From contig OX485807.1 in assembly GCA_950295325.1 (NCBI GenBank), positions 36,672,440 to 36,736,439 on the forward strand: 64,000 bases of DNA, in the 5' to 3' direction. This DNA is from Polytrichum commune (taxonomy: Eukaryota > Streptophyta > Polytrichopsida > Polytrichales > Polytrichaceae). The notes beneath the pieces are model-generated. The model was not told the origin of the DNA and searched no databases. It saw nothing but the letters and a program-made list of their open reading frames with translations. The translations under genes were made by a program, and so were the position numbers. Below, piece by piece: positions 1-64,000 of the stretch (the stretch's first letter is position 1; the number at the start of each line of letters is the position of its first letter).

Positions 1-1049
1 ATCTCCATCGTAGATTCCCATCCAAAAGTGCGTTAATTAAAGACCAAGGTAGCAGCCAACAAGTCTGCAATTAGGAGTCAATGATTTGGAAATTCCTATA
101 CAACAGATAAGAGATGTGAGAATTAGGGGATTTAACTGAGATACTGGATCATTGAAAAACTTCCTACCAAAACATATCCAGGAGTTAAGGAAAGGAAGAG
201 AGACTTCACCCACAGATGAAGGGATGGATGGACACAAGGCTGATCCGAACAGATCATTCCTCCGGAAACAATGATGATTCTGGCAGACTTCGAACTCCAA
301 TCTTGCAGTTAAGAATGAAAGGTTTCATTCTGTTGGAAGATTGATTAGTTGGTGGCAGCTGTGAAGTGGACGTTGAGAGTGCCCATCACGACCCGTCAAT
401 ATACCGAAGAATGTTGACAGATCGTGATGGACATGCCCATCATCCTCGTCAACCTACGATCGATCCAGACTCCTTCCAATTCCTGCTCCTCCTTCTGCAA
501 CAAGAATGATGTCGATCCTCCTGGTCAAGGTCTCCCTAATTACCGTCATGATCATGAATCACACATGATACGATGAAACAGGAACCAGGTATGTGTCGGT
601 GAAGAAGAAAACTGAAGAGAAGATCATTCAACGACATCAATGACCATCGACAGGAAACTACTAACAAAGTTGTTGATGAATACGGAGGGATAGGATAGGA
701 AACTATGTATCTAATGTCAAGCAATCGTTTTCGGATTCCTCAGATCTCTCCACAGTCATACAGACATGGTGGATATGTAATAGTGCATCATCATGTCCTT
801 ATAAACTCTCCAGACATGTGGAGTAGGACATGCGAATTTGGTCTCAGAAAACTTGAAGGTAAGAAACTTTATGTAGCTGCTTCTAAGTGAAGTTAAGTCA
901 CACTTAAGATGGTAAGACACATGATGTGATGAGTTGCTTCCAAGTGAAGTAAGTCATCAGATCGAAGATGATCATAAGACACATCATGATGAGTTGTTGC
1001 TTCGAAGTGAGAGTAAAGCGATCGACGGAGGAAGTCAAGAAAGGACTAG

Positions 1050-14316: not shown

Positions 14317-14428
14317 GAGGTTGGTCGAGGTGTGAAGCTAAATTGCTTGTCAAGTTCAAGTGAATCAGGCCAACTGCATGACCAGCGAAATGCAAAAGTA
14401 TACCTAAGGGAGGCTGGTCCTTCTGCTT

Positions 14429-15270
14429 GATCATGACTCCTCATAAACATTAAGTTATTACGAACTAGTGAAGATTTTTATGTTTTTGTGGGGTCAAGAA
14501 ATCACGTGGTTTCATTCTCGAACAATTAGCCTTGATTTTTTCGTAAATTCTTTGACCTTCGAAGTTCGATCTGAATATGAGTTAGTGGTCCGGACAATTT
14601 GTGCATTCCCAGTTCTTCTTCTTGATTATGAGTTGTCAAAACTAAGTTGTCTTGATCATGACTCCTCATTAACATTAAGTCATTAAGAACTAGTAAAGAT
14701 TTATTTTTATTTTTGTGGGGTCAAGAAGTCACGTGGTTTCATTCTCGAACAAATAGCCTTGATTTTTTCTTAAATTCTTTGACCTTCAAAGTTCGATCTG
14801 AATATAAGTTGGTGTTCCGGACAATTTGGGCATTCCCAGTTCTTCTTCTTGATTATGAGTTGATAAAACTAAGTTGTCTTGACCATGACTCCTCATAAAC
14901 ATTAAGTCATTAAGAACTAGTAAAGATTTTTTTATTTTTGTGGGGTCAAGAAGTCACGTGGTTTCATTCTCGAACAAATAGCCTTGATTTTTTCTTAAAT
15001 TCTTTGACCTTCAAAGTTCAATATGAATACGAATTGGTGTTCTGAACAATTTGGGCATTCCCAGTTCTTCTTCTTGATTATGAGTTGTTAAAACTAAGTT
15101 GTCTTGATCATGACTCCTCACAAACATTAAGTAATTAAGAACTAGTAAAGATTTTTTTTTTGGTGGGGTCAAGAAATCACATGGTTTCATTCTCGAACAA
15201 ATTCTTTGACCTTTGAAGTTCAATTAGAATATGAGTTAGTGTTCTAGACAATTTGGGCATTCCCAATTAA
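14429..15270. repeat. ~226-bp tandem array (four units)
   Basis: AACATTAAGT-ATTA-GAACTAG recurs at 14446, 14671, 14898 and 15123. Each unit holds GTGGGGTCAAGAA, CACGTGGTTTCATTCTCGAAC, TTTGACCTTC and CATTCCCAGTTCTTCTTCTT. The last unit has an internal deletion of the GCCTTGATTTTTTC segment. A CACGTG G-box sits in each of the first three units. Confidence 0.88.
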
Positions 15271-16462: not shown

Positions 16463-16960
16463 AGGCTGCTCCACACACGAGCCAAGAGCTGTGACCGTGA
16501 AATTTTGAGAGCTCAAAAGAAAGTGTCCAAAGGTTGTCCCAAGACACCTCCAAAATCTTTTAGTGTGTTCATAGATCCTCAAATGTAGTGTGAAGTCATA
16601 TGTGACTGGGCCCTCAACCAAGTGCTATTTCCATGAATTTCTATTCATGCGGGTCCTCGCGCATGATAAAATAGAATAAATCAACAGTTGAGAGCATTCG
16701 GAGTGCCGGGGTCTCCCGGTTTTGTGTTAGGCCTACCTCCAAGAGGTGGTGTTTGAAAATAATCCAAACGACCATGAAACATGATCCATTTGATGCCATG
16801 TAGGAATCCATGTAGACTTTACATCCATCTTGCATTCACATTCTCCATTGGCCCCTCAAGCGTAGTGTGAAGCGAACTTGGACCAGCTCCGCCCTTTCCA
16901 CGAATGAGAGTGCTTAAGTGTAATGGTCACGGGCTCTCAGTCTCCTGTGCGAAGTGGCCC
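16463..16960. mobile_element. Harbinger-type MITE, family H copy
   Basis: Right end GAAGTGGCCC is followed by TTA (16961-16963). The left end is worn (GGCTGCTCCACACACGAG). The interior matches the 29.6-kb copy over nearly its whole length. Confidence 0.78.
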
Positions 16961-17344
16961 TTAGACCTGCACCTCAACTTATCATAGTCATCCAGGTGAA
17001 CTACATAGTAACAAGTTAGACTCCCCATTGTCAGTTATAAGTAATAAGAGATACATGTACACAGCACTTGCTTTGAAGATGACTGTGTGCAAATCCAACG
17101 AGAAGTGCCGGTGGTTGCAAAAGTTGAAAGCTTCCGTTGAGGCCCGCCCGCTTGCTGGCTTGCTGGCTTGTTTGCCTTATTCCGCTCAGATATTATAGGC
17201 ACGTCGCATTAAGAAGAGTAACTACAGAGAGCGGCCCACACACATTGATTGTTGCGAATGTTTCGAATGGGGCCAAGTGCATGCCAGCAGATGTGTTAAC
17301 TTAAGGCAGGACAATACCCAAGGGAGGCGTCTTCTCATCAGTGA

Positions 17345-19213: not shown

Positions 19214-19750
19214 TATTATGAAAGAAAACTGCATGAGCACATTACCATAAAGAACCCAAACCAAGAACATGAGAGTCGATCTTGCTATGATGTTTGGAGT
19301 TGAGAGGTGAACCTCTTGTGAATTATAAGAAAACCGCATGAATACAGTACCATGAAGAACCCAAACAAGAAACACGAGAGTCGATCTTGTTATGATGTTT
19401 GGAGTTGGGAGGTGAATCTCTTGTGAATTATAAGAAAACCATATGAGCACAGTACCATAAAGAACCCAAGCAAGAAACATGAGAGTCGATCTTGTTATGA
19501 TGTTTGGAGTTGAGAGGTGAACCTCTTGTGAATTATAAGAAAACCACATGAACACAGTACCATGAAGAACCCAAGCAAGAAACATAAGAGTCGATCTTGT
19601 TATGATGTTTGGAGTTGAGAGGTGAACCTCTTGTGAATTATAAGAGAACCATATGAGCACAGTACCATAAAGAACCCAAGCAAGAAACATGAGAGTCGAT
19701 CTTGTTATGATGTTTGGAGTCGAGGTGTGAGCCTCTTGTGCATTATTTGA
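19214..19750. repeat. 105-bp tandem array (five units)
   Basis: Units carrying ACCATAAAGAACCC/ACCATGAAGAACCC start at about 19243, 19349, 19454, 19559 and 19664. Alternate units share variants (GCATGAATACAGTACCATGA versus ATATGAGCACAGTACCATAA), so the array grew by duplicating a two-unit block. The period is divisible by three, which explains the 196-codon open frame of 35-residue repeats on the minus strand (19172-19762). No sign that it is a gene. Confidence 0.88.
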
Positions 19751-22673: not shown

Positions 22674-23556
22674 TGCATGGGGAGAACCGGTGGTCAGTTA
22701 CAAATGAACCAGTCGAGTTTGATAAACAACCAGTTGAAGCCCGAGACTTCAGGAGAATTACCGATCATTTTAGAGGAATCTATAGAAGAATATACCTCAC
22801 ATGAATGAAAGCAAAACCCAGAAGATGTCAACATGTGATGGGTTGGAGAATTACCGATCATTTTAGAGGAATCTATAGAAGAATATATACCACATGAATG
22901 AAAGCAGAACCCGGAAGATGTCAACATGTGACCGGTTGGAGAATTACTGATCATTTTAGAGGAATCTATAGAAGAATATACCCCACATGAATGAAAGCAA
23001 AACCCGGAAGATGTCAACATGTGACCGGTTGGAGAATTACCGATCATTTTAGAGGAATCTACAGAAGAATATACCCCACATGAATGAAAGCAAAACCCGG
23101 AAGATGTCAACATGTGACCGGTTGGAGAATTACCGATCATTTTAGATGAATCTATAGAAGAATATACCCCACATGAATGAAAGCAAAACCCGGAAGATGT
23201 CAACATGTGACCGGTTGGAGAATTACCGATCATTTTAGAGGAATCTACAGAAGAATATACCCCACATGAATGAAAGCAAAACCCGGAAGATGTCAACATG
23301 TGACCGGTTGGAGAATTACCGATCATTTTAGATGAATCTATAGAAGAATATACCCCACATGAATGAAAGCAAAACCTGGAAGATGTCAACATGTGATGGG
23401 TTGGAGAATTACCGATCATTTAAGAGGAATCTATAGAAGAATATACCCCACATGAATGAAAGCAAAACCCGGAAGATGTCAGCATGTAAACCGGTTGGAT
23501 TTAGGATCACTAGGATCTTGACCGAAAACTACATATGCCCAAAAACTTCCCAGGCA
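22674..23556. mobile_element. MITE, family P, expanded by an internal 93-bp tandem array
   Basis: Ends TGCATGGGGAGAACC and CTTCCCAGGCA correspond to the family termini. The segment present once in the 13.6-kb copy is here repeated eight times, taking the element from about 220 to about 880 bp. Confidence 0.75.
22752..23490. repeat. 93-bp tandem array (eight units) inside a MITE
   Basis: Units start GGAGAATTACCGATCAT at 22752, 22844, 22938, 23031, 23124, 23217, 23310 and 23403: period 92-94. Units are nearly identical in the middle. Two alternating variants (CTATAG/CTACAG, AGAGG/AGATG) suggest the last duplications copied pairs of units. Because 93 is divisible by three, the minus strand shows an open frame of 31-residue repeats (22694-23419). 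I regard this as a by-product of the array, not a gene. Confidence 0.9.
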
Positions 23557-29493: not shown

Positions 29494-29557
29494 AACACAT
29501 TATAGCTATACAAATATTCACTCCTGATGGGACAAACAAAGCTCCTACTTGGCCTAA

Positions 29558-30052
29558 GGGCCACTTCACACACGAGCCAAGAGCCGTGACCATGAAATTG
29601 TGAGAGCCCAAAAGAAAAGTGTCCAAAGGCCATCCCAAGACACCTCCAAAATCATGTAGTTTAATCATGGATCCTCAAGTATAGTGTGAAGCCATATGTG
29701 ACCGGGCCCTCAATCAAATTGCTATTACAATGAAATTCTATTTATGCAGGTCCTCACACATGATAAATAGAATAAACCAACGGTTGTGAGCATTCGGAGT
29801 GCCATGGTCTCCCGGTTTCGTGTTAGGCCTACCTCCAAGTTGTGGTTCTTGAAAATAGTCCAAGTTACCATGAAACTTGATCCATTCGATGCCATGTAGG
29901 AATCCATGTAGACTTTGCATCCATCTTGCATTCACATACTCCGTTGGTCCCTCAAGCGAAGTGTGAAGCGAACTTGGACCGGCTCTGCCTGTTCCACCTA
30001 TGAGATTGCTTGAAGTGTAATAGTCATGGGCACTTAGTCTCGTGTGTGAAAC
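29558..30052. mobile_element. Harbinger-type MITE, family H copy
   Basis: Opposite orientation to the 48.3-kb copy. The left end is perfect and preceded by TAA (29555-29557). The right end has lost its terminal GTGGCCC, reading CGTGTGTGAA then TAA. Confidence 0.8.
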
Positions 30053-30321: not shown

Positions 30322-30478
30322 AAGAAGTTGCTGACAAGAGAAGGGTAGGGTTTTTGCCAATGGATGAACTCATCCATCATCCATGACAATATTCATTTAC
30401 TTACTCATAAGAAGCGTCACACGAAAAGTTGCCATAGTGACATAAAATACTGTATGACACTAACTATCTTTAGTGTTG
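30322..30478. mobile_element. MITE, family T, 3' fragment
   Basis: Only the right part is present, from a GTAGGGTTTTTGCCAATGG block through the terminal TTTAGTGT. The left half is missing. Confidence 0.65.
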
Positions 30479-40700: not shown

Positions 40701-43700
40701 GGGCTTGCAACCAAGTTAAACTTCTAGATTAACAACTTCTATTGTGCTGTAATGGATGTAGAAATTAGACTACAATTGTAGGTAGATACTCTGCAAGTAA
40801 AATGCAAGATAAACCAAAAGTTGTTCCTTGCGTAGCATTGCTACCACTAGAACTAATGCAATTGCAATAGCCATATTCATGGGGAAAACTTCATCTGACC
40901 AAAGTTCAACAGTGAGAAACCCACCACAGTTTGTGTCCATGAGGTAAACATGCTCCCCACTGTAGCTCAACAGGACTTCCTGGCCGTTTGGACTGAAGGT
41001 CACGTGTGTCAAATGAAGTCCTGATCGGCTCTGCATTGTGGACAATGAGTGAGACTCTTTGTCTCATATGACCTGAACTACTGAAGTTCATAAGCAGTAG
41101 ATGACAAATAGACTTCAACAATTTGGAGCAATATTAGCCAGAAAGTGAACATATTACATATTCTGATAAATGTGCTGGACAAAAGTAGCTGACGGGCTCG
41201 GGGGGCTTGCAAGGCTGCCTGGCTGATGTAGGAGGAGGAAGCTTGCGCCGATCATACATACGAGCAAATGCATCACTGCAACACCAAGAAATCCAAGTCT
41301 ATTATCTAGATCCGATTGAATTTAACAAGCAGATTTTGTTTCCTTAGAATGGAAGTGGTCTCACATTTATTTCAGAATCACAGTGAACAATGAAATCCTG
41401 CAGATCAATGAAATCCCACAGATCTAATTGACAAATTCAAAGACTTCTATGACCTGATTGTGGCTCACACAAACAAACTATAAACAAACAAGCACTTTGA
41501 AAGAGACAGTCACCAAGACCTTCCATAAACTTAACCAAATTCGTTGAACTCTTTAACCTAATTGAACACAACCGATCATCATAAAAATCTGTCTATCTAC
41601 TAAATTTATTGTCATCACAATTAACTTCAAGGTGATAAAAGTGAAGCACTTCCTTTGTGGTCCTTGCCTTCTTCAGAATGATTGTAATCAACATTGTGGA
41701 TCAACTGGAAGCACATTGGACATAGAGACCTACCATTTTCTACAACCAATAATAGGGAAATTTCCATGTTGTATGCACCTTTTGAGTTGCAGGAACCAAC
41801 AGATCCAACATTGGTCGAATGTATTCCAATGTTAACCTACAGAAATACTCTAGAGGCCAGTCCATGCACAAAGTGACACAAAACATTTACCTGCCTCCAA
41901 TAAGCAGTAGGTGAGGTCGTGTAGGACTAAGAGCACAAGTTTTCAGGACCAAGCACTGCTTTGGAGGATCTGCCAATGATTTCTTTTGGCCACCTCGAAG
42001 GTCCACCTGTCCAAACAAAACCCGTCATATATGTCAGAACTCTTTGTGAAATCTAGACCTCAACAATTGAATTTGCATAGTCCGAGATCAGGGTAGTGGT
42101 GCCTTCACATGCTATAACCATTACTACTGACGAAGTCGTACAAAAATACTCACAAGGATATTTCGACAGTCTTGATCTGCAGTAGATGGACACAGAATGC
42201 CCTGCCGAAAATCATGCTGCCTAAGTGTACCATCTTCACTTGCACTCCACACCACATTTGGATTCCCATCTTCAACCTAAGCAACAAAGAATTGTTCATA
42301 ATGACAACAAATTTAGAAATTTTTAAATAATCAAAAACCACTTGCACAAATGAAGGCTAGATATCTATCACTTTTGGAGAAAGTAGCTAGACTTATGATA
42401 TGATATTATGCTCCCTAGGTAACAAATAAGGGGTAGCAAATAATAAGTGAATGAATGACAATGGCCCATACCACAGTTCTAGCAACTAAGCACAGGCTTA
42501 TCATGAGTACCTACAAGCAAACAAGGTACAAAGTATTTTCACCAGCAAAAGCCACAAATAATTCTCCTCACCGCCAACTTCTTCACCCGTCTTGTGTGGC
42601 AACTAAAAAGTGCTGTTTGCTCTAAATATGAACCCCTTCCAGAGGCTGATGACCTGCTAACCCGATGTACTCTGACCTGAAGAGAGACAAACATAGTTTC
42701 TCATGAACAGAACAGAGAAGAGCAAAATACACAATCGCCCTGTTGAAATAGAAATTGTAGCAAACCCTCACCCTACATTCAACCAACAAGCTTTTGTCCA
42801 AGGGAGCAAATCAGCATTTCCCACAATTTCCAATATTCATGTGCAGGAACTTGACCCTGATCAGATTAAGTGGACTACTTACTGAACCTGGATTTAGCAA
42901 TACACACGTCTGAAAAGGTAAAGACATGATTCTCATCCTATTCAGCTTGTGAATGTTCACTCTAAATGGCATTCCAGTATCTAATGCACTAAGTAGGTTC
43001 ATAATAGTACATCAATACCATTAGCACCTGATTACGATCCAAACACTTCAAGACCAAATAATTGATATATTTGCACAAACCAATTCTAGACTTCCAACTT
43101 CTTATTTCTATGACCTCACCAGCTACCAAATTCTGATAAGTAAGTTTCACAGCACAAAGAATGACCAAATCAGAAAAAGCATATTTGGTTCTAATAGTTC
43201 TCATTATTCCAGCACTCAAACATACCTCTGCATCACCTGCACCAGAAACTACAACATCGTCTCCGGTCTCGGGCATAAATTTTGTACAGAATATATTAGC
43301 AGAATGTCCAGTGTCAATACTATGGAGCAATTGTTGACTTCCATAGTCCCAGATTTTAACCTGCCAGTCCGAACCATTGTATAAAATCACTACTCATACA
43401 TGTGATGCTCTACACAACCAATGATGAAAATTTGAAGATGAAGTTTGGTAACAAGCATGTCAGCAAATCACACTGGTGCAAATGCATACATCTGTAGATG
43501 AGTAAATTAAAAGAGGCCATTTAGAATGAGGTATGTCACGGGACAACTCACAGAAACAAGAGCGATTGAACCTACAATGTAACCAATTCTTCACAATTTA
43601 CCAGAAGCAGCATAGTTCATTGATTTCTGCTTGAGTGTAAGAACAAACCCTAGTATCATCAGATCCTGATATAAGGAGTGAGCCTTTCGCATTCCAAGCA

Positions 43701-47728: not shown

Positions 47729-48123
47729 CTACACTAAATATTATATTTGTGTCACCAATTCTAATTGTTTTGCTCAACACTAATTGTAAACCGCAGTATA
47801 GTGTCACCAACACTAAATGTTAACCCAATGTTATTTGTCATTCCTTGTAACTTTTTTTTGTTTTTGTCTTTTTTGGGGGGGGGGGATTACAAATTTACAG
47901 TGTTGCAATGATTGTCACTTACTAAGTGGTTTTTCATCCAACTCTCAATCATCCATGACAATGTTTCATCACAAGTTGATGACAAGGCGGGGTTTTTGCC
48001 AATGGATGAACTCATCCATCATCCATGACAATATTTGTTCACTTATTCATAAGAAGTGTCATCCGAAAAGTTATCATAGTGACATTAAATACCATATGAC
48101 ACTAAATATCATATTTAGTGTAG
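47729..48123. mobile_element. MITE, family T copy (CTACACTAAAT ends)
   Basis: Complete relative of the 55.9-kb element, 395 bp, with the same palindromic termini and interior. A poly-T/poly-G stretch near 47860-47886 expands the middle. It stands in the transposon cluster between the two genes. Confidence 0.8.
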
Positions 48124-48254
48124 CTCCAACATGAGCAAGCATGAATAAAAAGCATCTTTATTGGGCACACTATTACTCCCTTTCAGAGTTGAGTTTTATT
48201 CTAAGTATCAATTTGTCAAATTTCGGAAGGCCTCAATTGGAATCCCTATTGTAA

Positions 48255-48753
48255 GGGCCACTTCACACACGAGACTGAGAGCCCATGACCATTACACATC
48301 AAGCACTCTCATTGGTGGAAAAGGCAGAGTTGTTCCAAGTTCGCTTCATACTACGCTTGAGGGACCAACGGAGTATGTGAATGAAAGATGGATGCAAAGT
48401 CTACATGCATTCCTACATGTCATCGTATGGATCACGTTTTATGGTCACTTGGACTATTTACAGAAACCACCTCTTGGAGGTAGGTCTAACACAAAACATG
48501 GAGACCATGGTACTCCGAACATTCACAACCGTTGATTTATTTTATTTAATCATGTATGAGGACCCACATGGATAAAAATCCATTAAAATAGCATTTGGCT
48601 GAGGGCCCGGTTACATATGACTTCGCACTACACTTAAGGATATGTGACCACACTACATGATTTTGAAGGTGTCTTCAAACGGCCTTTGGAGACTTTCTTT
48701 TGGGCTCTCATAATTTCATGGCCATGGCTCTTGGCTCGTGTGTGAAGTGGCCC
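48255..48753. mobile_element. Harbinger-type MITE, family H copy (intact ends)
   Basis: 499 bp with inverted ends GGGCCACTTCACACACGAG and an exact TAA duplication on each side (48252-48254 and 48754-48756). This is the best-preserved member of the family. The termini share GGGCCA and, at the same spacing, CACAC with the full-length Harbinger that starts 280 bases downstream. Confidence 0.88.
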
Positions 48754-49032
48754 TAAGTTGCATTGCATCCCACACCCTCAATAGGACATCAAGTGAAATA
48801 CTATTAACGATTATCAATGCATTATTGCAGTTTTGGTATGCTATGTGTTCAAGTCAATTCAGACTCTCCAATTCTTTTGTTAAGTATGAATGTGGAAAGG
48901 GATTTTAATGGTCGTGCCGAATAGTTGTTATTGTAGTGCTTGGATTTTGAATATGGAGAGTTTGAGTTTGTTAAATGGTATGTTGGTATTATTTAAATTC
49001 ATGTCCCCACATCAACATGTGGTGGAGGGTTA

Positions 49033-51215: not shown

Positions 51216-52467
51216 TCAATCACTATCCATAGGAAACGTCTGTGCAATGCACGCCTTTGTCTTTGTCATCCATAGACTTTTGGCAATGTCATTTCTCCTT
51301 GCACATTTTTCTCTGTAGGTTTTGCTTCTTATACTCATTGCAATATGAAATTCTATGGCAGCTTCATGTTTGATGTATTCCAAGGTCTCTCTCGAGTTCT
51401 CTTTGATGTCAGCTAAGCTATGCAAAGCATGGTTTGCTACTGCAAGTCTCTCTTTTGTTGATGCCTTCGGAATTTTTCTGAGTATGAGGCCGTTATGGAC
51501 TTCATCTGAACCTTATTGCATCCACTCGTTTTTCCAAAAGTTGTCCCCGAAAATGATGCAAATATTGTGCAAAACCAAGCACGTGCTGACCAATTCGGGC
51601 ATAATCTTCAAATGCACGTCAATCCTCTTCAAGAGAATCCGCCATCTGCCTTTGAGCATACCGAATGTTCGCTCGATGTACATGCGTGTTGAGACCTGGA
51701 CAAAGTTCCAGTGGTACTCCTCTCGTGATAATCCGTCTTTGTGTCCCTTGAACGGAGCCAACATCCAGGGACGACATGGGTATGTAGCATCGCCAACCAA
51801 AGCATATGGCGAGAGTTTTCCAGCCTTACAGAATTATCCGATCGTGGTCCGTCCCCACAGATTGGCATCAATGCATTGATCTCGCCCAGCCTATGTCAAA
51901 ATCCCAAAACAAACATTTGCTTGATACCATTCCTTGCAAGAAGATTGAATGGACTCCTTTGCGGTTGTAATAATCAACAACATGCAGCCAAGGTGCGACG
52001 ATCGGTATGTGCGATCCATCAAACGTCCCCACCACATATGGTATTTAATGTAGATTTTGAAATTTCCGTACAAATTTGTTCATCACGGTGGTAGAAAGCC
52101 ATCTGATAAATTTCTTGAGTATAATTGTTTTTATGGGAATATTGAATTAAGAGATTGCTAGTTGACTTGTTGAGAGGCCAATCCTATATAAATCTGCAAT
52201 GCTCTGCATGGAATTACATGTGGCCAATCTTGAGATCGAGATAACTACCTTAATTTGAACTGGAATGATTGACCGCATGTTCGTATTTTGTTTCTGCAAG
52301 AAACGTGCGAGAGTGGAACACAAATATTCAAATGTCGAGACGTTCATACGCATGCATCCTTTGAACTCCCTCGTATTAAATGATCCGAACAGGTTTTGAT
52401 AAAAAAAACCATGTTGTCGCAACCCTCTCTCGTGAGCCCACAGTCGTTGTGGCCGCCTCCCATGCAC
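51216..52467 (-). pseudogene. Harbinger DDE transposase (DDE_Tnp_4 type), broken
   Basis: This was one intronless frame, read from about 52467 to a TGA at 51216. Motifs in order: a helix-turn-helix N-terminus with STFEYLCSTLARFLQ, the first aspartate in GTFDGSHIPIVAPW, HVVDYYNRKGVHS, SSKCLFWDFDIGW, the second aspartate in HDANLWGRTT, LVGDATYPC, HWNFVQVSTRMYIERTFGMLKGRWRI with the catalytic glutamate, and CLVLHNICI. The frame is interrupted by stops at 52147-52149, 52045-52047, 51834-51836 and 51513-51515, and by a one-base insertion at about 51870, just before the second catalytic aspartate. All three catalytic positions survive as DNA, but no full-length protein can be made. Confidence 0.9.
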
Positions 52468-52956
52468 TCGCCTGAATCCCTACACTGCAAGCGTCATAGA
52501 ACAGAGTTGTTGCCAATGTCATACAAAAATCACCCCTTCATCTCTTGACAAAATTTCCAACGTACAGAACAATGAGAGCTGAAAGATAAGTAGAATTATG
52601 AGCTTCTGGACCTCGATGTCCATCTTGACAGAGTGTGTGGTTTCCTAAACAAGCAATTGCCTTGAAACCGGAGCAGACAGAAATGAATGCTAATTATGAG
52701 GTTCTGGAGAGGTCATCTTCCTGCTAGGTCGAAGTACGTTGGTCTCTCCCACAAAAGTGGCTTCGAAGGTCTTGCTTTTCCCAGTGGCCCTTTGCCTCTT
52801 GTGTCGTAACTCTATGCTGGATTTGGTGACCTGGCTCTATCTACCCTACAGACCTTCGTAGCCTCTGCTGGCAAATTTCCTGCCGTTTGTGTGGCATCCA
52901 CCTTAGTGTGAGGGCAACCTTCACTATGTCCAAAGTTCGTGAATATGAAATTGTAA

Positions 52957-54048: not shown

Positions 54049-57000
54049 CTAGACTTCCAACTTTCCAACACCAAAGGAAGACTTGGTATCACATTTGAGC
54101 TCAAGGTACAACGAGAAGAACAAATGTAACGACTCCACCCGGCTCTCGTACCTACATAATGAAATGTGGAAAAGAAAAGAAAAAGCACAATGTTAAACCG
54201 ACACAATATAATATTGATCGACTTCATTTACCTGCATACGTAATTTCACGACATTGTCAATGGTTGAAAGAGGGTGTGAATATAGTATGCAATCAATGGG
54301 ATGGGTCAATAGACTTACACCGGGATATCAAAGATCAAACAACAAATGTCAACGAAAGTTGCGAGATCCACATCCAACGTAGCCGAAGGAAGCTCAATCT
54401 CATTCAAAGTTTTCTCGATTGTTGGCGGCCACTCCTATTCAAATCATACATGAATGCGAATGCGTTGTGAGTGCTTTCGATTTATGCAAGGAAAATGCAA
54501 GGTTCAACTCTTACTAGGCTTTGTTACTAGACCACTTATGATCGAACTTCACATTGTAATAATGAACATCGCGTACTCCAATACGGCTTTGATGTTTGGG
54601 GTACTACAAATGAAAACATTCAATACATGTTATTGCTTGATGATAATGTTAGGCAAGAGATTAACAATTCACCGTGTTTGTGTGACAATGTCACAATTGC
54701 CAATTTAGGGTCTAGAGTGGCCATGAATTTTTTGAATGGTCATATTTTATTGTGGTTCTTTTAGGTTTTATAGACTTTCAAGGACCAGTGACCAATGACG
54801 ATGACCACCATTTTTTAAATGCTCTCATTGGTCACATGGTGGTCTCGCTTTGAATTATACAAGGTCAATGAAAATTGAAGTGACCATGGGCAAGCATGTC
54901 AAAAAAATGAATGAGAAAGTGGCATGGAATCCTACAGGTTCAAAAGTGGATAATGTTTGATGATCACCCAAATTTTGTGATGAGAGAATCCAAATAAGTT
55001 GTCTCAGTGGGAAATGAAGGTGGCCATGTCTAAATATAAAAATAGAAGAAAATTCATTTCTAGCATTATATAGTATAAACAACAACAACAACAAAAACAC
55101 TACATTTGGGTCTAAGTTTACACTACGTCTCGTGACCAAAGCTTTGAGAAAATTGACGTGGATTTCTCTTGGTCATGGTCTTTGGACCACCAACCATCAC
55201 CGTTGAAATCCTAACTCCATTTTTCATCACTCCCTTGGTCACATGTGTACAACAACCCTCATGTGTGACCTAGAGAATTAGATACTTGGCACAAAACTCA
55301 CTTGCTTAAGCACCTCCATTTTGGGCATAGGCTTTGAGAAATTAACAGTGGGTGGTGGTTCATTGCAATGTAGTTCTTTAATGCTCTTAATCCACGCATC
55401 CAACTTTTGAGGATTCTTTTCAACAAGATCAATAGATGGGACCTGCATACATTCCCACTTACACATCCGTAAATGATCGCTCATCCAAGAGTAGAAGGTT
55501 ATCATAACTCATAACATTTTTGCATACATGGCGCACGAGATCGTTCATTTTATTTTTTCCATGAGTTAACTGGTTTCAACTAATAACCAACTCAAGTAGG
55601 TAGATGACTCGCCACTTGCAGTTGGTCATTCGCTCTCTGCTTGTTGGTTATGCAACGCATAATGACAAGAGAACAATGCATTTGCTAGTTATGTTATGCA
55701 AGGACCAAGATAACATGCATAAACTCTCCAACCAGGCAAGTTTGAACCCTTGGGGAGTGGATCTTTCATATAACGTACAAATTAACGTGAGTGTAACAAG
55801 GAGTACCTAGGAGAGAGAATTTTTTTCTTTTCAAGTGTGTACATTTAGAAAGGCAATTAAGAATGTTGAAGTGAATGTAAATGTAGAAAAGGGAGCCCTC
55901 AGGTTTAGAGAAAATTTTGATAATTGATGTGCTACACTAAATATAATATTTAGTGTCACCAATTCTAATTGTCTTGCTCAATACCAATTGTAAACCGCGG
56001 TATAATGTCACCACCACCAAATGTTAACCCAACATTATTTGTCATTCCTTGTAACTTTTTGGGAATCAAAGTTTTACAATGTTGCGATTATTGTCACTTA
56101 CCAAGTGATTTTCATCCAAATTTCAATCATCACTGACAATCTTTCATCACAAGTTGTTGACCAAATAAGGTAAGTTTTTTGGCCAATGGATGAACTCATC
56201 CATCATCCATGACAATATTTGTTTACTTAATCATAAGAATTGTCATCCAAACAAATTACCATAGTGACATAAAATATCATATGACACTAAATTTCATATT
56301 TAGTGTAGTTTCATCCAAATCATGTTTTCATTCATTATTGTCATATGGTAATACTCCTTAATGACTACCTTGTTCACTCTTGTTAGGGATTGCATTTGGG
56401 TTCTAGGTATTATAAGCTGAAGACTCTTGGAGCACTCATGGGCTCCCTTGAATTTCGCTCTTTGGATTATGGCTAGTTTATTGTGTTGTTGTCTTTGTTT
56501 GTTTGATGCAATCAATGAGTTACATGCTATGCATGAGAAAAAAGTTCAACATTTGACTTTCTCATTGGAAAGCTACAATGGATTCTATTAGAAGTAAAGG
56601 CCTAATTAATCCACAATTTTGTATATGTAATGAAGGCAATTATCACATTAAATTGAAAACCTTACTTTAAATACATGACTTCATTTTCTAGCATGCCGTT
56701 AGTACATATACATTTGATTTTCTCTGCAAACTTTTTGTATATAAGAGGTTCAATTTCAAAGTGACCCATGCATGTCATTTAGGTCTCCAATAAAGAGTCC
56801 ACCCCCTGGTTTGAACCTTACTCACTGTAAGATGAAAAACCTTGTGTGAAAAAATACTTTATTAACATGTTGTCATGTTAGACGCCTTGCATGTCCAATC
56901 ATAATTAATGTATAGAGTTTGCACTTCAATGGACAAATCTTATGACAGAAATGACATAAACAACTTTTAGATATGAACTAAATTTCTTGTTGTTGACATG

Positions 57001-58771
57001 CTTTAGTTGCATGCACAAAACTTGATTATTTGACCACATTGCTTCTCAAAATATGTATAATTAGGATTTCCATCATATTCTTTTGACATCTTCTTCCAAA
57101 TATTTTTTTGTAGAGCAAAGTTTTTTGTCCACGCTTACTAAAATGAGAATGTCACGTATATGTAAAGTACGACAGGCCAATTTTTTCAAATGTAACACTT
57201 TCACTTTAAAAATGAAAGAATCACTCTTGAATAACCTAATTTAGGTCTACATGCGTATGGTAGTGTCTAGTGGGCAAGAAAATTGCATGCTCAGACTTTG
57301 AGCACAAGTGTTGGACCTTGCACTTGACAATTGTGAAAACACACATAACATTGTTGAGTAGAACATTGATGTTCCTTTCGGAATTGATTATTATAGATAC
57401 CATCTTGGAGAATTTTCAGTGTTAAATTGAATAAATGATATGTGTGAAGGCTTCAAGTCTTAAGATGGGCTCACAATGGGTTGAGGAAAGGTTATATTAT
57501 GCATAATGTAGCATGAGCCAAAAGTAAGGTTTAGGTTGATATAATAACTGCACATATAATTTAGTAAGTAATTCTCTCAGAAAGAGGACGAAACAACTTC
57601 AAATGTTAACAACTTGTTTTTAATTCACAACATGTCCTTCCAAGTTCAACATTTGTATAAATCATCTCTAGAATAGGACATGGATGTGGTAACAATCATA
57701 ACATTATTCATCTCCATAACAATGTTATGGAGATGAAAATGTGAAGAATATTTCACGGAATAATGTCAGTCCCACATAATCTTGTTATGGATTTGAATAA
57801 TGTTATGATAGCCTCAACGAGTTCATAATTCATTCTATATATTGAGCACCTGGACCGGATGGAGATTAGGTTGCGAACACGCCGACCGGAGTTGCAACAT
57901 CAACACTTGTGCGTCACTTTGCTTTGGTCCATCCTCGTCCAATACCTACACCAACCCAATATTTTAGTTAGTTCTGTTATCCCCAAATGTTAATGGCTTC
58001 AGTTTTTTCTTGGTTTGTTTGAAAACGGTTTGTGGGTAACATGTGCACACGACAATAATATGAAGAAGAATAAAATTGTTATTGACACGCCATTATGAAA
58101 TGTAGATATGTATTCACCCAAAGTTGAACAACTTTTTGTTTGGGCCATTTGATCATGGACACGTCTTGTAAGTTCATGCAAGGCCCAAACCACTTATGAA
58201 CTCTAGAAACTTCTCAAGACCTTACCTTCAATCCAAGATTATCACAATGATCATCTGGACGTGGGACCTTGATGAACTCGTCAACAAGACCTAAGGCAGG
58301 AATGAACTCGGGAAGAAATGGCTTGAGAGTGGTCCCGATTTCTATATCACGTGGCTTGTATTGGTCTATGTATTGAAACAATTCACTTATCTCATTGTCC
58401 TGCATTCAAAATTGTAAACGTTTTGTTTGAAATTGGTTAAAAGGCTTGATGTAGCACATGTATTGGATTCATGGTATATTTAATCTTTCCAATTTCTTGC
58501 AATTGTTGAATATATGCATAATTTGAAAATATGATCATGTAGCTTTTTGATGAGACTATTGAAATGAACATATTGTTACCGGGAATGAATCAATACGGTG
58601 AGAGTACAAAGTATCATGAGAAGGGGCCCTCATCAAAGCGGAGGATGGCTGATGCCTCCCGATCGAAGGAGACATGACAAATTCATCAAAGTTGCTATGA
58701 AGTAATGAATCTTGATATCGAAGACATTGAGAGGTATTTTCAGTAACTAATGGTGTTCCAATTGCATCCAT
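54049..58771 (-). CDS. IFT46: Intraflagellar transport protein 46 (IFT46), IFT-B subunit, six exons
   Basis: IFT46 is a core subunit of the IFT-B train that carries cargo, notably outer dynein arms, into cilia. Exons on the minus strand run 58771-58580, 58399-58226, 57945-57850, 55442-55302, 54434-54319 and 54151-54049. All boundaries are GT-AG and every phase fits, giving 273 residues. Family landmarks appear in order: ELFQYIDQYKP and LKPFLPEFIPALG (residues ~70-102), VDEFIKVPRPD (~103-113), NLGLK then VLDE (117-126), KQSD (130-133), KNPQKLDAWI, a PPPTVNFSKPMP block (~185-195), EWPP (202-205), LPSATLDVDL, DIPVY joined across the last intron (237-241), then ESLHLFFSLYLELK. The start ATG at 58771 is the first in frame after an upstream stop; an unseen upstream exon is possible. 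The N-terminus is shorter than in animal or Chlamydomonas IFT46 (about 300-345 residues) and lacks their acidic tract. No frame damage is seen, so the gene looks functional. Confidence 0.93.
55749..56807. mobile_element. MULE-type MITE, family G copy 3, in IFT46 intron 3, carrying a nested MITE
   Basis: Left end CTTGGGGAGTGGATC, right end GAGTCCACCCCCTG. The 9-bp flank GTTTGAACC is repeated exactly on both sides, the target-duplication size of Mutator-like elements. A second element (55932-56308) is inserted within it, so this copy is the older insertion. It lies in the large third intron of IFT46 and does not touch an exon. Confidence 0.82.
55932..56308. mobile_element. MITE, family T copy (CTACACTAAAT ends), nested in family G copy 3
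   Basis: Both ends carry CTACACTAAAT in inverted orientation, and each terminus is itself nearly palindromic (ACTAAATAT/ATATTTAGT). If the outer CTA/TAG is shared target sequence, the duplication is TA. The interior matches the 47.7-kb copy closely, including AATGGATGAACTCATCC. Confidence 0.8.
57697..57807. mobile_element. Hairpin MITE, family C copy 1, in IFT46 intron 3
   Basis: 111 bp, almost wholly one inverted repeat: CATAACATTATTC... paired with ...GAATAATGTTATG, with ATAACAATGTTAT inside. It lies about 40 bases downstream of the exon-3 donor of IFT46. The transcript could form a strong hairpin here. Confidence 0.72.
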
Positions 58772-58984
58772 GAAACCTAGATTACTAAAACTCACATAAA
58801 TCTCATGCGAGTATTGTTCAATAACAAAACACAAAACATAATTTCATCGAGCAATGTCTGTAGAATCAACGAGAAATATAATATCCTAAGAATTCCATTA
58901 GTGGTCTATTTATGGACAAGGAGTTAATACAAGTCATATGACTAGTAGGCATTGATATTGACATAAAACTATCATAAGCTCTAG

Positions 58985-58994
58985 TCTATATATC
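58985..58994 (-). promoter_or_regulatory. Candidate TATA box of IFT46
   Basis: A TATATA core on the minus strand lies about 215 bases upstream of the proposed IFT46 ATG. With initiation about 30 bases downstream this would give a leader near 190 nt, and the 58771 ATG would then be in the first exon. The region is AT-rich, so chance occurrence is quite possible. Confidence 0.3.
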
Positions 58995-59289
58995 ATGGAT
59001 AGTGCACCCAACATGGTCAATTGAAAAACAAGTGTACATGAAAACAAAATGAAGGATGAAGACGTGTGTGTGTGTTTATTATTTTAATTGCAATAATCAA
59101 TCTTATCTACCTCTATAATACTAATTTTCAAACATGATATAATCTTTGTTGACAATAGAGTTCAAAACATTGTGAAGCCCTTTTGGCAAAGTGAAAAGAC
59201 TATTGATTTTTTGAGCAACCATGTAATCTTCTTCTTTTTCATCTTTTTAGCACTATTGTCAATAAATAACTTTGAGACAATGAGGACTT

Positions 59290-59627
59290 TGGAACATACT
59301 TGATTGAATTCGCACTTATTGAATTCAATCTTCCCGTCTGTAGAATGCACCACAAGTACTTGAGATTAATTCAAAGCCACATTATAGGATTGAAGTATGT
59401 CTTTTAAAGTGCCCCATGATACATAGACATTGTGTACTACAACACAAGTCTAATTTGGCATCTATATGTATGCATTTGACAACATTTACTGCATTTAGGA
59501 CCTGGTAAACCTTTTGGCTAACATCAAATGCCTTAGTAACCATGGTTCCAAGGTACTTCTCACACTCCATGAAGAATGTCATCTTAGAGCTATTATCAAC
59601 ATCTACAAAGGCTACATTTGACAACAT
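59290..59627 (-). other. Unidentified coding-like segments near the IFT46 promoter
   Basis: The 59627-59382 frame contains FVDVDNSSKMTFFMECEKYL and GTMVTKAFDVSQKVYQ. A second frame, VLVVHSTDGKIEFNKCEFNQ, ends at a GTATGT donor near 59297. They lie upstream of IFT46 on the same strand, partly within a local tandem duplication. No family recognised; coding status is doubtful. Confidence 0.2.
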
Positions 59628-59750
59628 TTACTACATTTATGTCTACCTAACCATGGTTCCATGGTATTTTTCAAACTCCATGAAGAATATCATCTTAGAG
59701 ATATTATTAACATGTACAAGGGCTACACACAATGACTTTGTAGCGATGGT
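59538..59750. repeat. Tandem duplication, ~113-bp period
   Basis: AACCATGGTTCCA-GGTA followed by CTCCATGAAGAAT and ATCTTAGAG occurs at about 59538 and 59651. On the minus strand the right-hand copy is decayed, while the left-hand copy is part of an open frame (see 59290-59627). Confidence 0.7.
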
Positions 59751-60349
59751 TGTCTATGTACATGATTATTGGTGAAAAATGAATGATGGGAACCTCTCTT
59801 GAGGAGGTCGCTAGCGAAAATCGTAGAAACAAAGTGCGATAAAAAACATGGTCTAATGTATTCATTGTGGATAAATTTTGCAAAAAACATACATGTAATA
59901 TAGGGAGTTTTTAAATAATGAAACATGTTTACATGTAAAACACCATCACATACAATGGCCTTTTTTTAATCTAGTCATTACATATGAAATAATGTGGAAA
60001 CAATTACTAGGGGTGGCTAGTCTAGGGTAAGGTTTGTGCTAGTGGATGAAAAGAAGTAATTTTCTAACCAAAAAGCTTGGATGGATGACTTCGCAGGCTG
60101 ATTGGCTTGAACGTTACTGAACCAACGTATCCAATGTGGAGTTAATGTTCTCTGCCTACGTGCCGGGAGGGAAAATTCCAGCGCGTTGTTTAAATTACAC
60201 TCTTCTTTCTAAAATTCTTTGGCAATATAAGTAAATAGGGGTATTTTAAAATGAGTTCCCAAAAATTTATAAAAATTGATAGGGTGTATTAAAATAAAAG
60301 CATTTACCTTTATTTTCAAAGATATCATACCTTATAATCTTTTCTACAA

Positions 60350-60425
60350 GGTAAATAGCCCCCCGATAAATAACTCATGAGCGCACATGTATGCATTAAT
60401 ATAAGAGGGAGTGACCTCCCCGAGG
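60350..60425. repeat. Dispersed element, second copy of the poly-C repeat
   Basis: AAGGTAAATAGCCCCCCGATAA ... AGAGGGAGTGACC, then TCCCCGAGGAAC; related to 22223-22311. Confidence 0.45.
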
Positions 60426-61004
60426 AACTTGTCTACATACAATGGAGCTCATGGTGGTGGTTGTGGGACTATGGGAGCCTACAAAAGATGGACACATGTC
60501 CAACTAGCTCTTCAAAGGAAAAAGGATGCATGTTAAAGATTCTTTCTGAAAACAAATTGTTGACAATAGAAGGAGGACACAAATGTGGAAAGGTGGGATT
60601 ACAAGTGCAAAAGGTGGGTATGGTGGGGAAACTTGGGGGAGTTGGAGGGAATGGACCCAAGGTGGTGAGATGGCACGGGCGGGGGGCATGGGGGCGTATG
60701 AGCATGTGCATGGACATACATACATATGACATGTACACACATGCATAGGGTTGCATGTATGCATGACCGTATGTTTGCAAGTGTATGGGGTTGTGATGAC
60801 CCATGATAATAATTCTTATTTACAAGTGCAACAGGCTGGAATGGCATGGGTCAAACTAGTAAGCTTACATGTGGACTATGTGTTGAAGATGGTCGTGCAA
60901 AATCCGAGCTTGAGATTGGTTGCATCGATCTTCTACTCATGAGATGATCCCCAATAATTCTTGATAAATGTTACATGGATAGACAAATTGATTCTATTGT
61001 AATG

Positions 61005-61275
61005 GAACCTACTTACCAATGCTAGGCATATGTAGAGAGCCTTAATCAAGTGCAATGTTATGGTCATTAGCTTCATGATTGCATCACCTTCTATTGAAGA
61101 TGTAATTTTTATAATTACACCTCACAATGGTCAATTATCATATCCATTGTTAATAAATATAATGAAGAAACAAAAGATGATATTATGATGCAACCTACTT
61201 ACCAAAGTTAGGCATATGTACGTAGCGAGCCTTCGTCATGTGCATTGTCATGGTTGTTAGTTACATGTTCCGATT
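61005..61275. repeat. Tandem duplication, ~185-bp period
   Basis: AACCTACTTACCAA-G-TAGGCATATGTA followed by GAGCCTT and GTGCAATGTTATGG occurs at about 61005 and 61191. Confidence 0.65.
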
Positions 61276-61980
61276 ATGGGATCAAAATGCCATCATCGAT
61301 AGACTGTAGTTTCATGCCAATGCACCAAAACTTGATTGAACAAGATCAAACAATATCTCACAATGCAATTACTATAACAAATAATTCAATAAATCTACAA
61401 ACTTGTAAGGTACATTTTCAACCGGACATCACCAACATTTGTAAGGCAATGCACCGACCCCAAAGCCCTTTCACGGGCCTTCCACAAGTTCAAAAGTAAC
61501 TCCCAAGATAGCAAGCTTAGGGAGCTTGTGTGTTCTTACGTGTAAAAAATGGTAGGACTAGTACATTACATTGCATAATGCATCAAAATTAAACTTGCAT
61601 TCCACATAAAAGAATCGTTGACACATTTCAATTGTGAGTTGTAAGAGTGACTTAAATGAATGGAAGCCACTTTGCATGTACCTAGTTTAATCATTTTACT
61701 GTGGGACCATTTCGAGAGAGTTATATAAGTTGATGTGGATTAGACAAGGATTACAACATTATTCAACATGCATATTCCGATTTATTCTATCAATATCCTT
61801 GGTTGATGCATGGAGGGGGTAGATTTCGACCATAACAATAATGATAGTGGACATCATTGAACATGAATAGTACAATAAAATAGAATAAATAATTGTCGAC
61901 TAATCTTATGAGAACACACAATGTACAAACTGTCGATATGGGTTAGTATGATTACTAAAGAATTCTCCTCATCATCATTG

Positions 61981-62130
61981 CATAAAATTATTCAAATCTA
62001 TAACAATGTTATGTGGGACTGACAATATTCCACGGAATACTCCCCCTACATCCACTCTGAACGTAGGGGAATGTTCCGTTGAATATTGTCAATCCCAAAT
62101 AACATTGTTATTGATCTAGATAATGTTATG
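61981..62130. mobile_element. Hairpin MITE, family C copy 2
   Basis: 150 bp, same family as the copy in IFT46 intron 3. The two ~60-bp arms pair through AATATTGTCA/TGACAATATT and CATAACATTAT-type ends. Confidence 0.72.
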
Positions 62131-62149
62131 TGTCACCACCTTCACCTTC

Positions 62150-63475
62150 TTGCATTTTGTATGAGTTTGCACTAGAGGTTGGTCTTGAGTTAGGACTTGC
62201 CTCTATGCTCTCTCCTTTTGGGGACTTCTTGCCTCTAAAACAATGCAATGACGTTCATATCAATGATATTGTGACCAACTAGGAACTCAAGGAATGCCCA
62301 TGACATGTTTCCATAAACAAAATTATGTTGTTCGCTTGAATGGAGTTGTGAGGACCACAAAGTTGTGGCAACCATGTAAGTTGAAACTTAAACACTTACA
62401 CATATAATCTCAAAATTAGCATGAGAAATTCCAAATTAGTCTCGGGAGATTAAGATAAAATGAACCAACCACAAATCTATAAAGGACAACTTACTACAAT
62501 GCTCTTTAACATGGGCACCTTGTATCCTAAGCTAAATGTAAAGGTTGCTTGCGGGTTTGAAGACAAAACCCATTCTCCACTTCCTTTGGTGTTGTAGTCA
62601 GTAATTGTTTTATTTTTGATCTCCCAAAACATGCGCCCACCACTCCAAGTCTTGATATCTTCAAACGTGTTTGATGAGCACGTATCAAGTTAGAACTTCA
62701 TGATCACACCTTGGGTTGAAGTTCTAGCCGAAGAAAGACAAACACATTATTGATCACGAATATTGCACCATCATCACAATGTTTTGGGAGTTGTTAAATT
62801 TGTAGAGCATTTATGCCATGTACTCTCATGCGAAATCACCTCCACTGAAAAAACAAGTTTTCCACTACAATTGTACTAGAGGACATCATGTTAAAGTCTT
62901 TTGCTACACTTTCCAAATCTTTGTCCATATGGTTCCCAATGTGAGATAGGGTTTTTGGCCATAAAGGCGGAGAAAACGACAATCTTTCATTAGATGCCGG
63001 TTCATTCAGTCATGTGAATTGTGGGGAGGAAGCGACACTTGATGAACATACATGTGCATAGTTGTTTATAGCAAGTACCTAGGGAAAATGACTCTCAAGT
63101 AGGTTATGTAGTCATCACAACACTAACATGCTTGAGAAATGAAAGGCGCTTATATGCACTCAAGTTAAAGAACAATCTTCTTCATGAGATGAACCCTTTT
63201 TTTCGTTGTTTTTGTTTTTTGCACTAGTGTAACCACAAGTTTGGGATAAGTTTGCTTACTTGTCCCATGTGGCTGAGAAATATTATACGATTGTAATGAC
63301 AACGTGGATATCTATATCTATTAATACGTATACCTTTCGATGAACCATTTTGGCGTGGGATAGGGGTACCGAATGCTTCGATAGTGGACCTAATATATAA
63401 CAGAGTATACTATGGTTTAGTTTAAGATACACCCTCAAAGACATGAGCATCCCAAATTGCAACTTTCCATTTCAC
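62150..63475 (-). other. Unidentified coding-like segments, possibly one decayed spliced gene
   Basis: Three or four frames on the minus strand look like exons. 63475-63405: LSKIQLVKWKVAIWDAHVFE, ending at a possible donor. 63010-62845: LSHIGNHMDKDLESVAKDF to VVENLFFQW, ending TGGAG|GT. 62732-62495: TSTQGVIMKF, then an in-frame TAA, then TFEDIKTWSGGRMFWEIKN, GSGEWVLSSNPQATFTF and GYKVPMLKSI before a GTAAGT donor. About 62235-62131: a lysine-rich end. The phase across the second junction fits (AG+A). The internal TAA suggests a pseudogene. I cannot name the family. Confidence 0.35.
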
Positions 63476-64000
63476 AAGTTGGATCTTGCTCAAATTTAAG
63501 GTTTATTTTGTAAGGTTGATTCACTTTTATTTTGGTATTGACACAACGAGCCAAGTCCATCAAATGGTCATTGATACAATGTAATTTATGTTGGAAGGTT
63601 ATTATGCATGTTATTGTAGAGACTTTGTAAAAAAAATGTTAGACTACATGGCAAATTTTGAATGAGGTGAATGTGTTTGAATGTGCGTGTCACCCTAAGA
63701 AAGATTGGGTGGAGGATAGAATCTTTTCCCAATAGAAATTACATCCAAGGTAAACATGCTTGCTTAATGACTATCTTACTCACACACCTATTTTGGAGTG
63801 GTGCATGTTTACAAGATGTGTATCCAAGATGAGCACCAATAATATTTGCATTTAATAAAAATTAGGAATAACCCCGGGGCGATCACACCCCCTTACGTTT
63901 CATAATCACGTGCGATAAAAGTTTGCTAGCCTATATTAAATGCAATAGATAATTTTTAAAATTATGATACATATACATAATTATTGATAATATCTTTTGT

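What the first reader, a model, noticed from the sequence alone, without database searches (positions are those of the whole stretch)
54049..58771. A ciliary transport gene (IFT46) dates this genome to a plant with swimming sperm
Six exons join in phase into a protein with the ordered IFT46 landmarks (KVPRPD, VLDE, KQSD, EWPP, DIPVY, ESLH...FSLYLEL). Angiosperms lack IFT genes, so the gene restricts the organism to seed-free plants, cycads or Ginkgo. Only spermatogenous cells build flagella in such plants, so expression should be confined to them.
Basis: partly seen in the sequence, partly recalled or inferred. Interest (0 to 1): 0.75.

Follow-up and report, generated by a model that had tools for sequence, protein, structure and literature searches.

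The report
Intact IFT46 gene in a moss
This is an ordinary, intact moss copy of IFT46, a gene used to build the tails of swimming sperm; its front end seems to lack the hook that carries outer dynein motors in algae, which would fit moss sperm having no such motors.

Summary
Six exons on the minus strand (58771-54049), with five GT-AG introns, join into a 273-residue protein. It matches Pfam IFT46_B_C at E=1e-74 and is 49% identical to Chlamydomonas IFT46 over 193 core positions. It is the only IFT46 locus found in this 408-Mb genome. The organism is very probably a moss: the window also holds a MIR1033 precursor, a miRNA family reported for Physcomitrium patens. IFT52 and IFT140 were found too. 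An IFT46 gene in a moss is expected, not new.

One modest addition: the 64 residues before the conserved core lack the Nxxx(D/E)E motif that docks the outer-arm adaptor ODA16 in Chlamydomonas. No ODA16 orthologue was found here, and published work says mosses lack outer dynein arms. The moss protein may be an IFT46 reduced to its core IFT-B role. This is suggestive only: the same searches also missed other IFT genes, mammals lack the motif yet have outer arms, and no transcript or second moss was available.

The parts
58580..58771 (-). IFT46 exon 1 (192 bp): ATG and the 64-residue N-terminal stretch with no detectable similarity to Chlamydomonas IFT46 1-113 and no Nxxx(D/E)E motif
   Evidence: start codon is the first ATG of its open frame but is not confirmed by a transcript
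58226..58399 (-). IFT46 exon 2 (174 bp): start of the conserved core, KVPRPD
57850..57945 (-). IFT46 exon 3 (96 bp): VLDE, KQSD
55302..55442 (-). IFT46 exon 4 (141 bp)
54319..54434 (-). IFT46 exon 5 (116 bp): EWPP, DIPV
54049..54151 (-). IFT46 exon 6 (103 bp): ESLH..FSLYLEL and TAG stop
55443..57849 (-). IFT46 intron 3 (2407 bp), which holds a small inverted-repeat element at 55932-56308
367..447 (-). MIR1033 microRNA precursor, used here as lineage evidence (moss)
   Evidence: Rfam RF03297, 85.8 bits against a gathering score of 70

Best explanation
The locus is the intact, single-locus IFT46 gene of a moss. IFT46 is a core IFT-B subunit that, in studied organisms, binds IFT52 through its C-terminal domain and is needed to assemble the IFT-B complex and hence flagella. 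In a moss the only flagellated cells are the sperm, so the protein most likely works when spermatids build their two flagella. Shown here: gene structure, family membership, core conservation, the presence of IFT52 and IFT140 in the same genome. Inferred: lineage (strong), protein function (from orthology), expression in spermatogenous cells (from biology only). Secondary reading, less certain: its N-terminus no longer docks ODA16, because moss sperm have no outer dynein arms to carry.
For: Six exons, five GT-AG introns, one open frame. PF12317 E=1e-74. Chlamydomonas IFT46 E=1.7e-58, 94 of 193 aligned core positions identical. The solved C-terminal IFT46 domain of 4uzz_A matches residues 164-261, E=3e-21. 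Only one locus in the genome by profile and by Chlamydomonas protein. IFT52 GIFT domain in four stretches at C3:25.05 Mb; IFT140 by three IFT140-type Pfam families on one 949-residue frame. Moss affinity: MIR1033 and P. patens origin of that family (passage).
Against: No transcript, no protein, no moss or fern orthologue to compare. Six of eight other ciliary profiles gave no true match: IFT43, ODAD1_CC, BBS2_N, DLIC, IFT81_CH gave none, and the six IFT57 matches lie in a low-complexity repeat. Some of these are probably misses of an unspliced search (IFT172 was also not seen with the shared IFT140/IFT172 profile), but an incomplete IFT set is not excluded. For the secondary reading: see rival 2.
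Confidence: 0.93

Rival explanations
1. Contamination: the gene belongs to a flagellate alga or an animal in the sample.
For: The sequence is only 49% identical to the one plant-lineage relative available, Chlamydomonas, and no land-plant IFT46 was available for a tree.
Against: It lies inside a 52.9-Mb contig at about 36.73 Mb, in the same 64-kb window as a MIR1033 precursor. Its intron 3 holds an element with a second copy elsewhere in the window.
Confidence: 0.02
2. The N-terminal reading is an artefact of annotation: a further 5' exon, not recognised here, carries the acidic N-terminus and the ODA16 docking motif.
For: The start at 58771 rests only on the first ATG of an open frame; in-frame AG dinucleotides lie just upstream. 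The annotated N-terminus (64 residues before the core) is shorter than in Chlamydomonas (113).
Against: None of the three minus-strand frames from 64000 down to 58500 contains Nxxx(D/E)E; a motif split by an intron or lying beyond 5.2 kb upstream would escape this.
Confidence: 0.3
3. The gene is a decaying copy that is no longer used.
For: Exon 1 shows no similarity to Chlamydomonas; no expression data.
Against: Open frame over six exons, all splice sites canonical, full-length core match, and no other copy found.
Confidence: 0.03

Closest known systems
Chlamydomonas reinhardtii IFT46 (PDB 8bd7 chain D)
   Same: Core from the ELFxYI..YKP stretch to LYLE.K aligned end to end, 94 of 193 positions identical; same landmarks.
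   Different: Chlamydomonas has 113 residues before the core with an ODA16-docking motif at 29-34; the moss N-terminus is 64 residues, has no such motif and no similarity above shuffles (score 22; 1509 of 2000 shuffles equal or exceed it). The Chlamydomonas chain runs 34 residues beyond the matched stretch, the moss protein 13.
IFT46 C-terminal domain, PDB 4uzz chain A
   Same: Residues 164-261 match it at E=3e-21.
   Different: Only this domain was solved there; its organism and its IFT52 partner are recalled, not read in a call.
Mammalian IFT46
   Same: Also lacks the Nxxx(D/E)E motif, according to passages of PMC11879689.
   Different: Mammals keep outer dynein arms, so in them the motif was lost without losing the cargo.

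Membership tests
IFT46 (IFT-B subunit) | IFT46_B_C domain (PF12317) | tested here: met
   251.2 bits against a cut-off of 22.2, E=1e-74, profile 13-208 of 211
IFT46 (IFT-B subunit) | Orthology to a proven IFT46 rather than to another protein | tested here: met
   Best PDB matches are IFT46 8bd7_D (1.7e-58) and the IFT46 domain 4uzz_A (3e-21); the third and last, a designed bundle, has E=0.78. No tree was built.
IFT46 (IFT-B subunit) | Partner IFT52 encoded in the same genome | tested here: met
   PF23355 matches: four stretches at C3:25.053-25.057 Mb and one at C1:46.95 Mb
IFT46 (IFT-B subunit) | Binding to IFT52/IFT88 and presence in IFT trains | not testable with these tools
   needs protein
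IFT46 with Chlamydomonas-type ODA16 docking (a subset; not a defining feature of IFT46, since mammals lack it) | Nxxx(D/E)E motif in the N-terminus | tested here: not met
   No match in the 273 residues; found at 29-34 in the Chlamydomonas sequence by the same script. Depends on the annotated start.
IFT46 with Chlamydomonas-type ODA16 docking | ODA16 encoded in the same genome | tested here: inconclusive
   61 matches to Chlamydomonas ODA16, all beginning at query residue 82 or later; the best is 42% over 149-282, as for WD40 proteins in general. Control: the Chlamydomonas IFT46 core found 2 of the 5 exons that encode it.
Moss genome | Moss miRNA family present | tested here: met
   RF03297 MIR1033 at 367-447, 85.8 bits, gathering score 70. 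That the family is confined to mosses is recalled.

The most novel reading that the evidence does not exclude
In mosses, loss of outer dynein arms and of the adaptor ODA16 was followed by erosion of the matching docking site on IFT46. The IFT train thus lost a cargo hook while its core was kept: a cargo-by-cargo reduction of IFT that can be read from one protein's N-terminus.
Probability: 0.45. Interest if true: 0.4.

Novelty: new member of a known kind. Interest (0 to 1): 0.25.

Why it matters
The gene adds one well-resolved moss IFT46 model, useful for annotation. If the N-terminal reading holds, moss IFT46 would be a natural test of which part of an IFT subunit is for cargo and which for the train: the Chlamydomonas motif was defined by mutation, and mosses would supply the evolutionary counterpart, where motif, adaptor and cargo are all gone.

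Tried and rejected
Contaminant: rejected on contig context. Second IFT46 copy: none found by profile or by Chlamydomonas protein. IFT57: the six matches are frames of a repetitive LNSQISTLKSQ-like tract and were dropped. ODA16 candidate at C1:48.277 Mb, which has a 67% match over 42 residues: inspected in L010 and L011; it is a different WD40 gene, with a coiled-coil-like stretch upstream and 31-43% identity in shifting registers over its longer matches, and no match to the ODA16 N-terminal domain (best E for that part 6.0). L008 and L009 likewise gave no significant N-terminal match. These are 3 distinct places of the 61 matches; the other matches were judged from the table only. Non-detections of IFT43, ODAD1_CC, BBS2_N, DLIC and IFT81_CH are not read as losses: the tool gave no positive control in any of its 14 control genomes.

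Structure prediction was not used: the spliced protein is not a letter-for-letter translation of window DNA, which the tool requires. No tree: no plant IFT46 set was available. PMC5576905 (N-terminus of IFT46) is not held. No passage I read discusses the N-terminus of a moss IFT46, but only passages were read, and the key paper on land-plant cilia (Hodges et al. 2012) was seen only as a citation.

Full report
What is there. On the minus strand between 58771 and 54049 six exons join through five GT-AG introns into one open frame of 822 bp, 273 residues. The joined protein matches Pfam IFT46_B_C at E=1e-74 over residues 65-259, and Chlamydomonas IFT46 at E=1.7e-58, with 94 of 193 aligned core positions identical. 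Searched against the 407.8-Mb genome in 64 contigs, the profile found 3 stretches, all exons of this gene, and the Chlamydomonas core found 2, both in this gene. So one IFT46 locus was found; unspliced searches may miss others.

Whose genome. The window lies in contig C5, 52.9 Mb. At 367-447 it holds a MIR1033 precursor, 85.8 bits against a gathering score of 70. A passage of PMC10094499 lists miR1033a-e as P. patens miRNAs; that the family is confined to mosses is recalled. A light-harvesting protein of the genome (L012, a TTG-started open frame) was compared with the PDB (60 of 88 matches shown): the top entry is a chain with two matching domains, and the next two are 8htu and 7xqp, which I recall as P. 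patens photosystem structures; this is weak support. A haploid number of seven would fit Polytrichales (recalled); this is a guess and no species is claimed.

The machinery around it. IFT52, the partner of IFT46, is present at C3:25.05 Mb. One 949-residue frame on C1 is IFT140, an IFT-A subunit: second propeller E=2.2e-39, C-terminal TPR E=9.6e-17, IF140/IFT172 TPR E=1.2e-161. So at least one IFT-A and two IFT-B subunits are encoded. IFT43, IFT81_CH, DLIC, BBS2_N and ODAD1_CC gave no match and IFT57 only a repeat artefact. None of these had a positive control. IFT172 did not appear either with a profile built for IFT140 and IFT172, so misses must be expected. A passage of PMC9010356 says bryophytes and pteridophytes lost BBSomes and MKS proteins; a passage of PMC4947347 reports IFT-A, IFT-B, kinesin-2 and dynein-1b transcripts in the male gametophyte of the fern Marsilea.

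How it most likely works. By orthology, as an IFT-B subunit that holds IFT52 and supports flagellar assembly. A passage of PMC3936282 states that Chlamydomonas ift46 mutants cannot assemble flagella. In a moss this would act in spermatids; no expression data were available here.

The N-terminus. In Chlamydomonas, residues 23-44 of IFT46 bind ODA16, the adaptor for outer dynein arms, through a 29-Nxxx(D/E)E-34 motif; mutating it abolishes binding. Passages of PMC11879689 say the motif is conserved in trypanosome, zebrafish, Tetrahymena, frog and worm and absent in mammals. Passages of PMC12637542 and PMC4415241 say moss sperm lack outer arms. A passage of PMC4361367 says ODA8 is missing from P. 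patens and Selaginella and that ODA16 shows a similar pattern, though the sentence can be read as referring mainly to a second group of organisms. In the present protein the 64 residues before the core have no Nxxx(D/E)E and align to Chlamydomonas 1-113 no better than shuffles (score 22, shuffle mean 24.8; 1509 of 2000 reach it). No minus-strand frame from 58500 to 64000 has the motif. Chlamydomonas ODA16 gave 61 matches in the genome, none reaching into its first 81 residues, the best 42% over 134 residues (101 of 140 candidates scored). Three places were checked in detail and none resembles ODA16 beyond its WD40 repeats. This fits a co-loss of motif, adaptor and cargo.

Limits of that reading. 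Absence of a short motif from 64 residues is what chance alone would usually give, so its weight rests on the start codon being right, which is unproven. Mammals lack the motif but keep outer arms, so the motif is not a reliable marker of the cargo. The genome search for ODA16 is exon by exon; its control recovered 2 of 5 core exons of IFT46. One genome cannot show when or in what order losses occurred.

Verdict. The docking-motif loss is a small, testable addition.

Noticed in passing
window 55932-56308 (IFT46 intron 3); second copy 47729-48123; partial 30325-30476: A 377-bp element with 27-bp terminal inverted repeats (92.6% alike), MITE-like, sits in intron 3; the second copy is 86-91% identical in two pieces. 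Genome copy number was not measured.
   Followed up: partly
window 51516-52479, minus: Remnant of a Harbinger-type transposase, DDE_Tnp_4 E=6e-17 for the 51516-51833 frame, downstream of IFT46; the family label Harbinger is recalled.
   Followed up: partly
G000 C5:1751760-1846160: Fourteen light-harvesting (Chloroa_b-bind) genes with the same top score within about 94 kb; five of them compared over 501 bp are 96.6-98.4% identical to a sixth. Recent expansion or gene conversion.
   Followed up: partly
G000 C1:46.950 Mb (L005) and C3:25.053 Mb (L006): The single IFT52 exon match on C1 lies in a 1.46-kb stretch 87.7% identical to the C3 IFT52 locus, including non-coding flanks: a partial segmental duplicate rather than a retrocopy.
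   Followed up: partly
window 14426-15202, 19222-19746, 22752-23499: Tandem arrays with periods 225, 105 and 93 bp.
   Followed up: no
G000 C2:59299937-59300906 (L004): A repetitive tract open in three frames, reading LNSQ/ISTLKSQ-like repeats, that mimics a coiled coil and gave false IFT57 matches.
   Followed up: no
window 16469-16963, 29554-30050, 48252-48757: Three copies of an approximately 490-bp dispersed repeat, 85-87% identical pairwise.
   Followed up: no
window 42992-43393, minus: Open frame with weak WD40 similarity (WDR5 propeller E=8.6e-06, below the curated cut-off), perhaps an exon of a WD40 gene.
   Followed up: no
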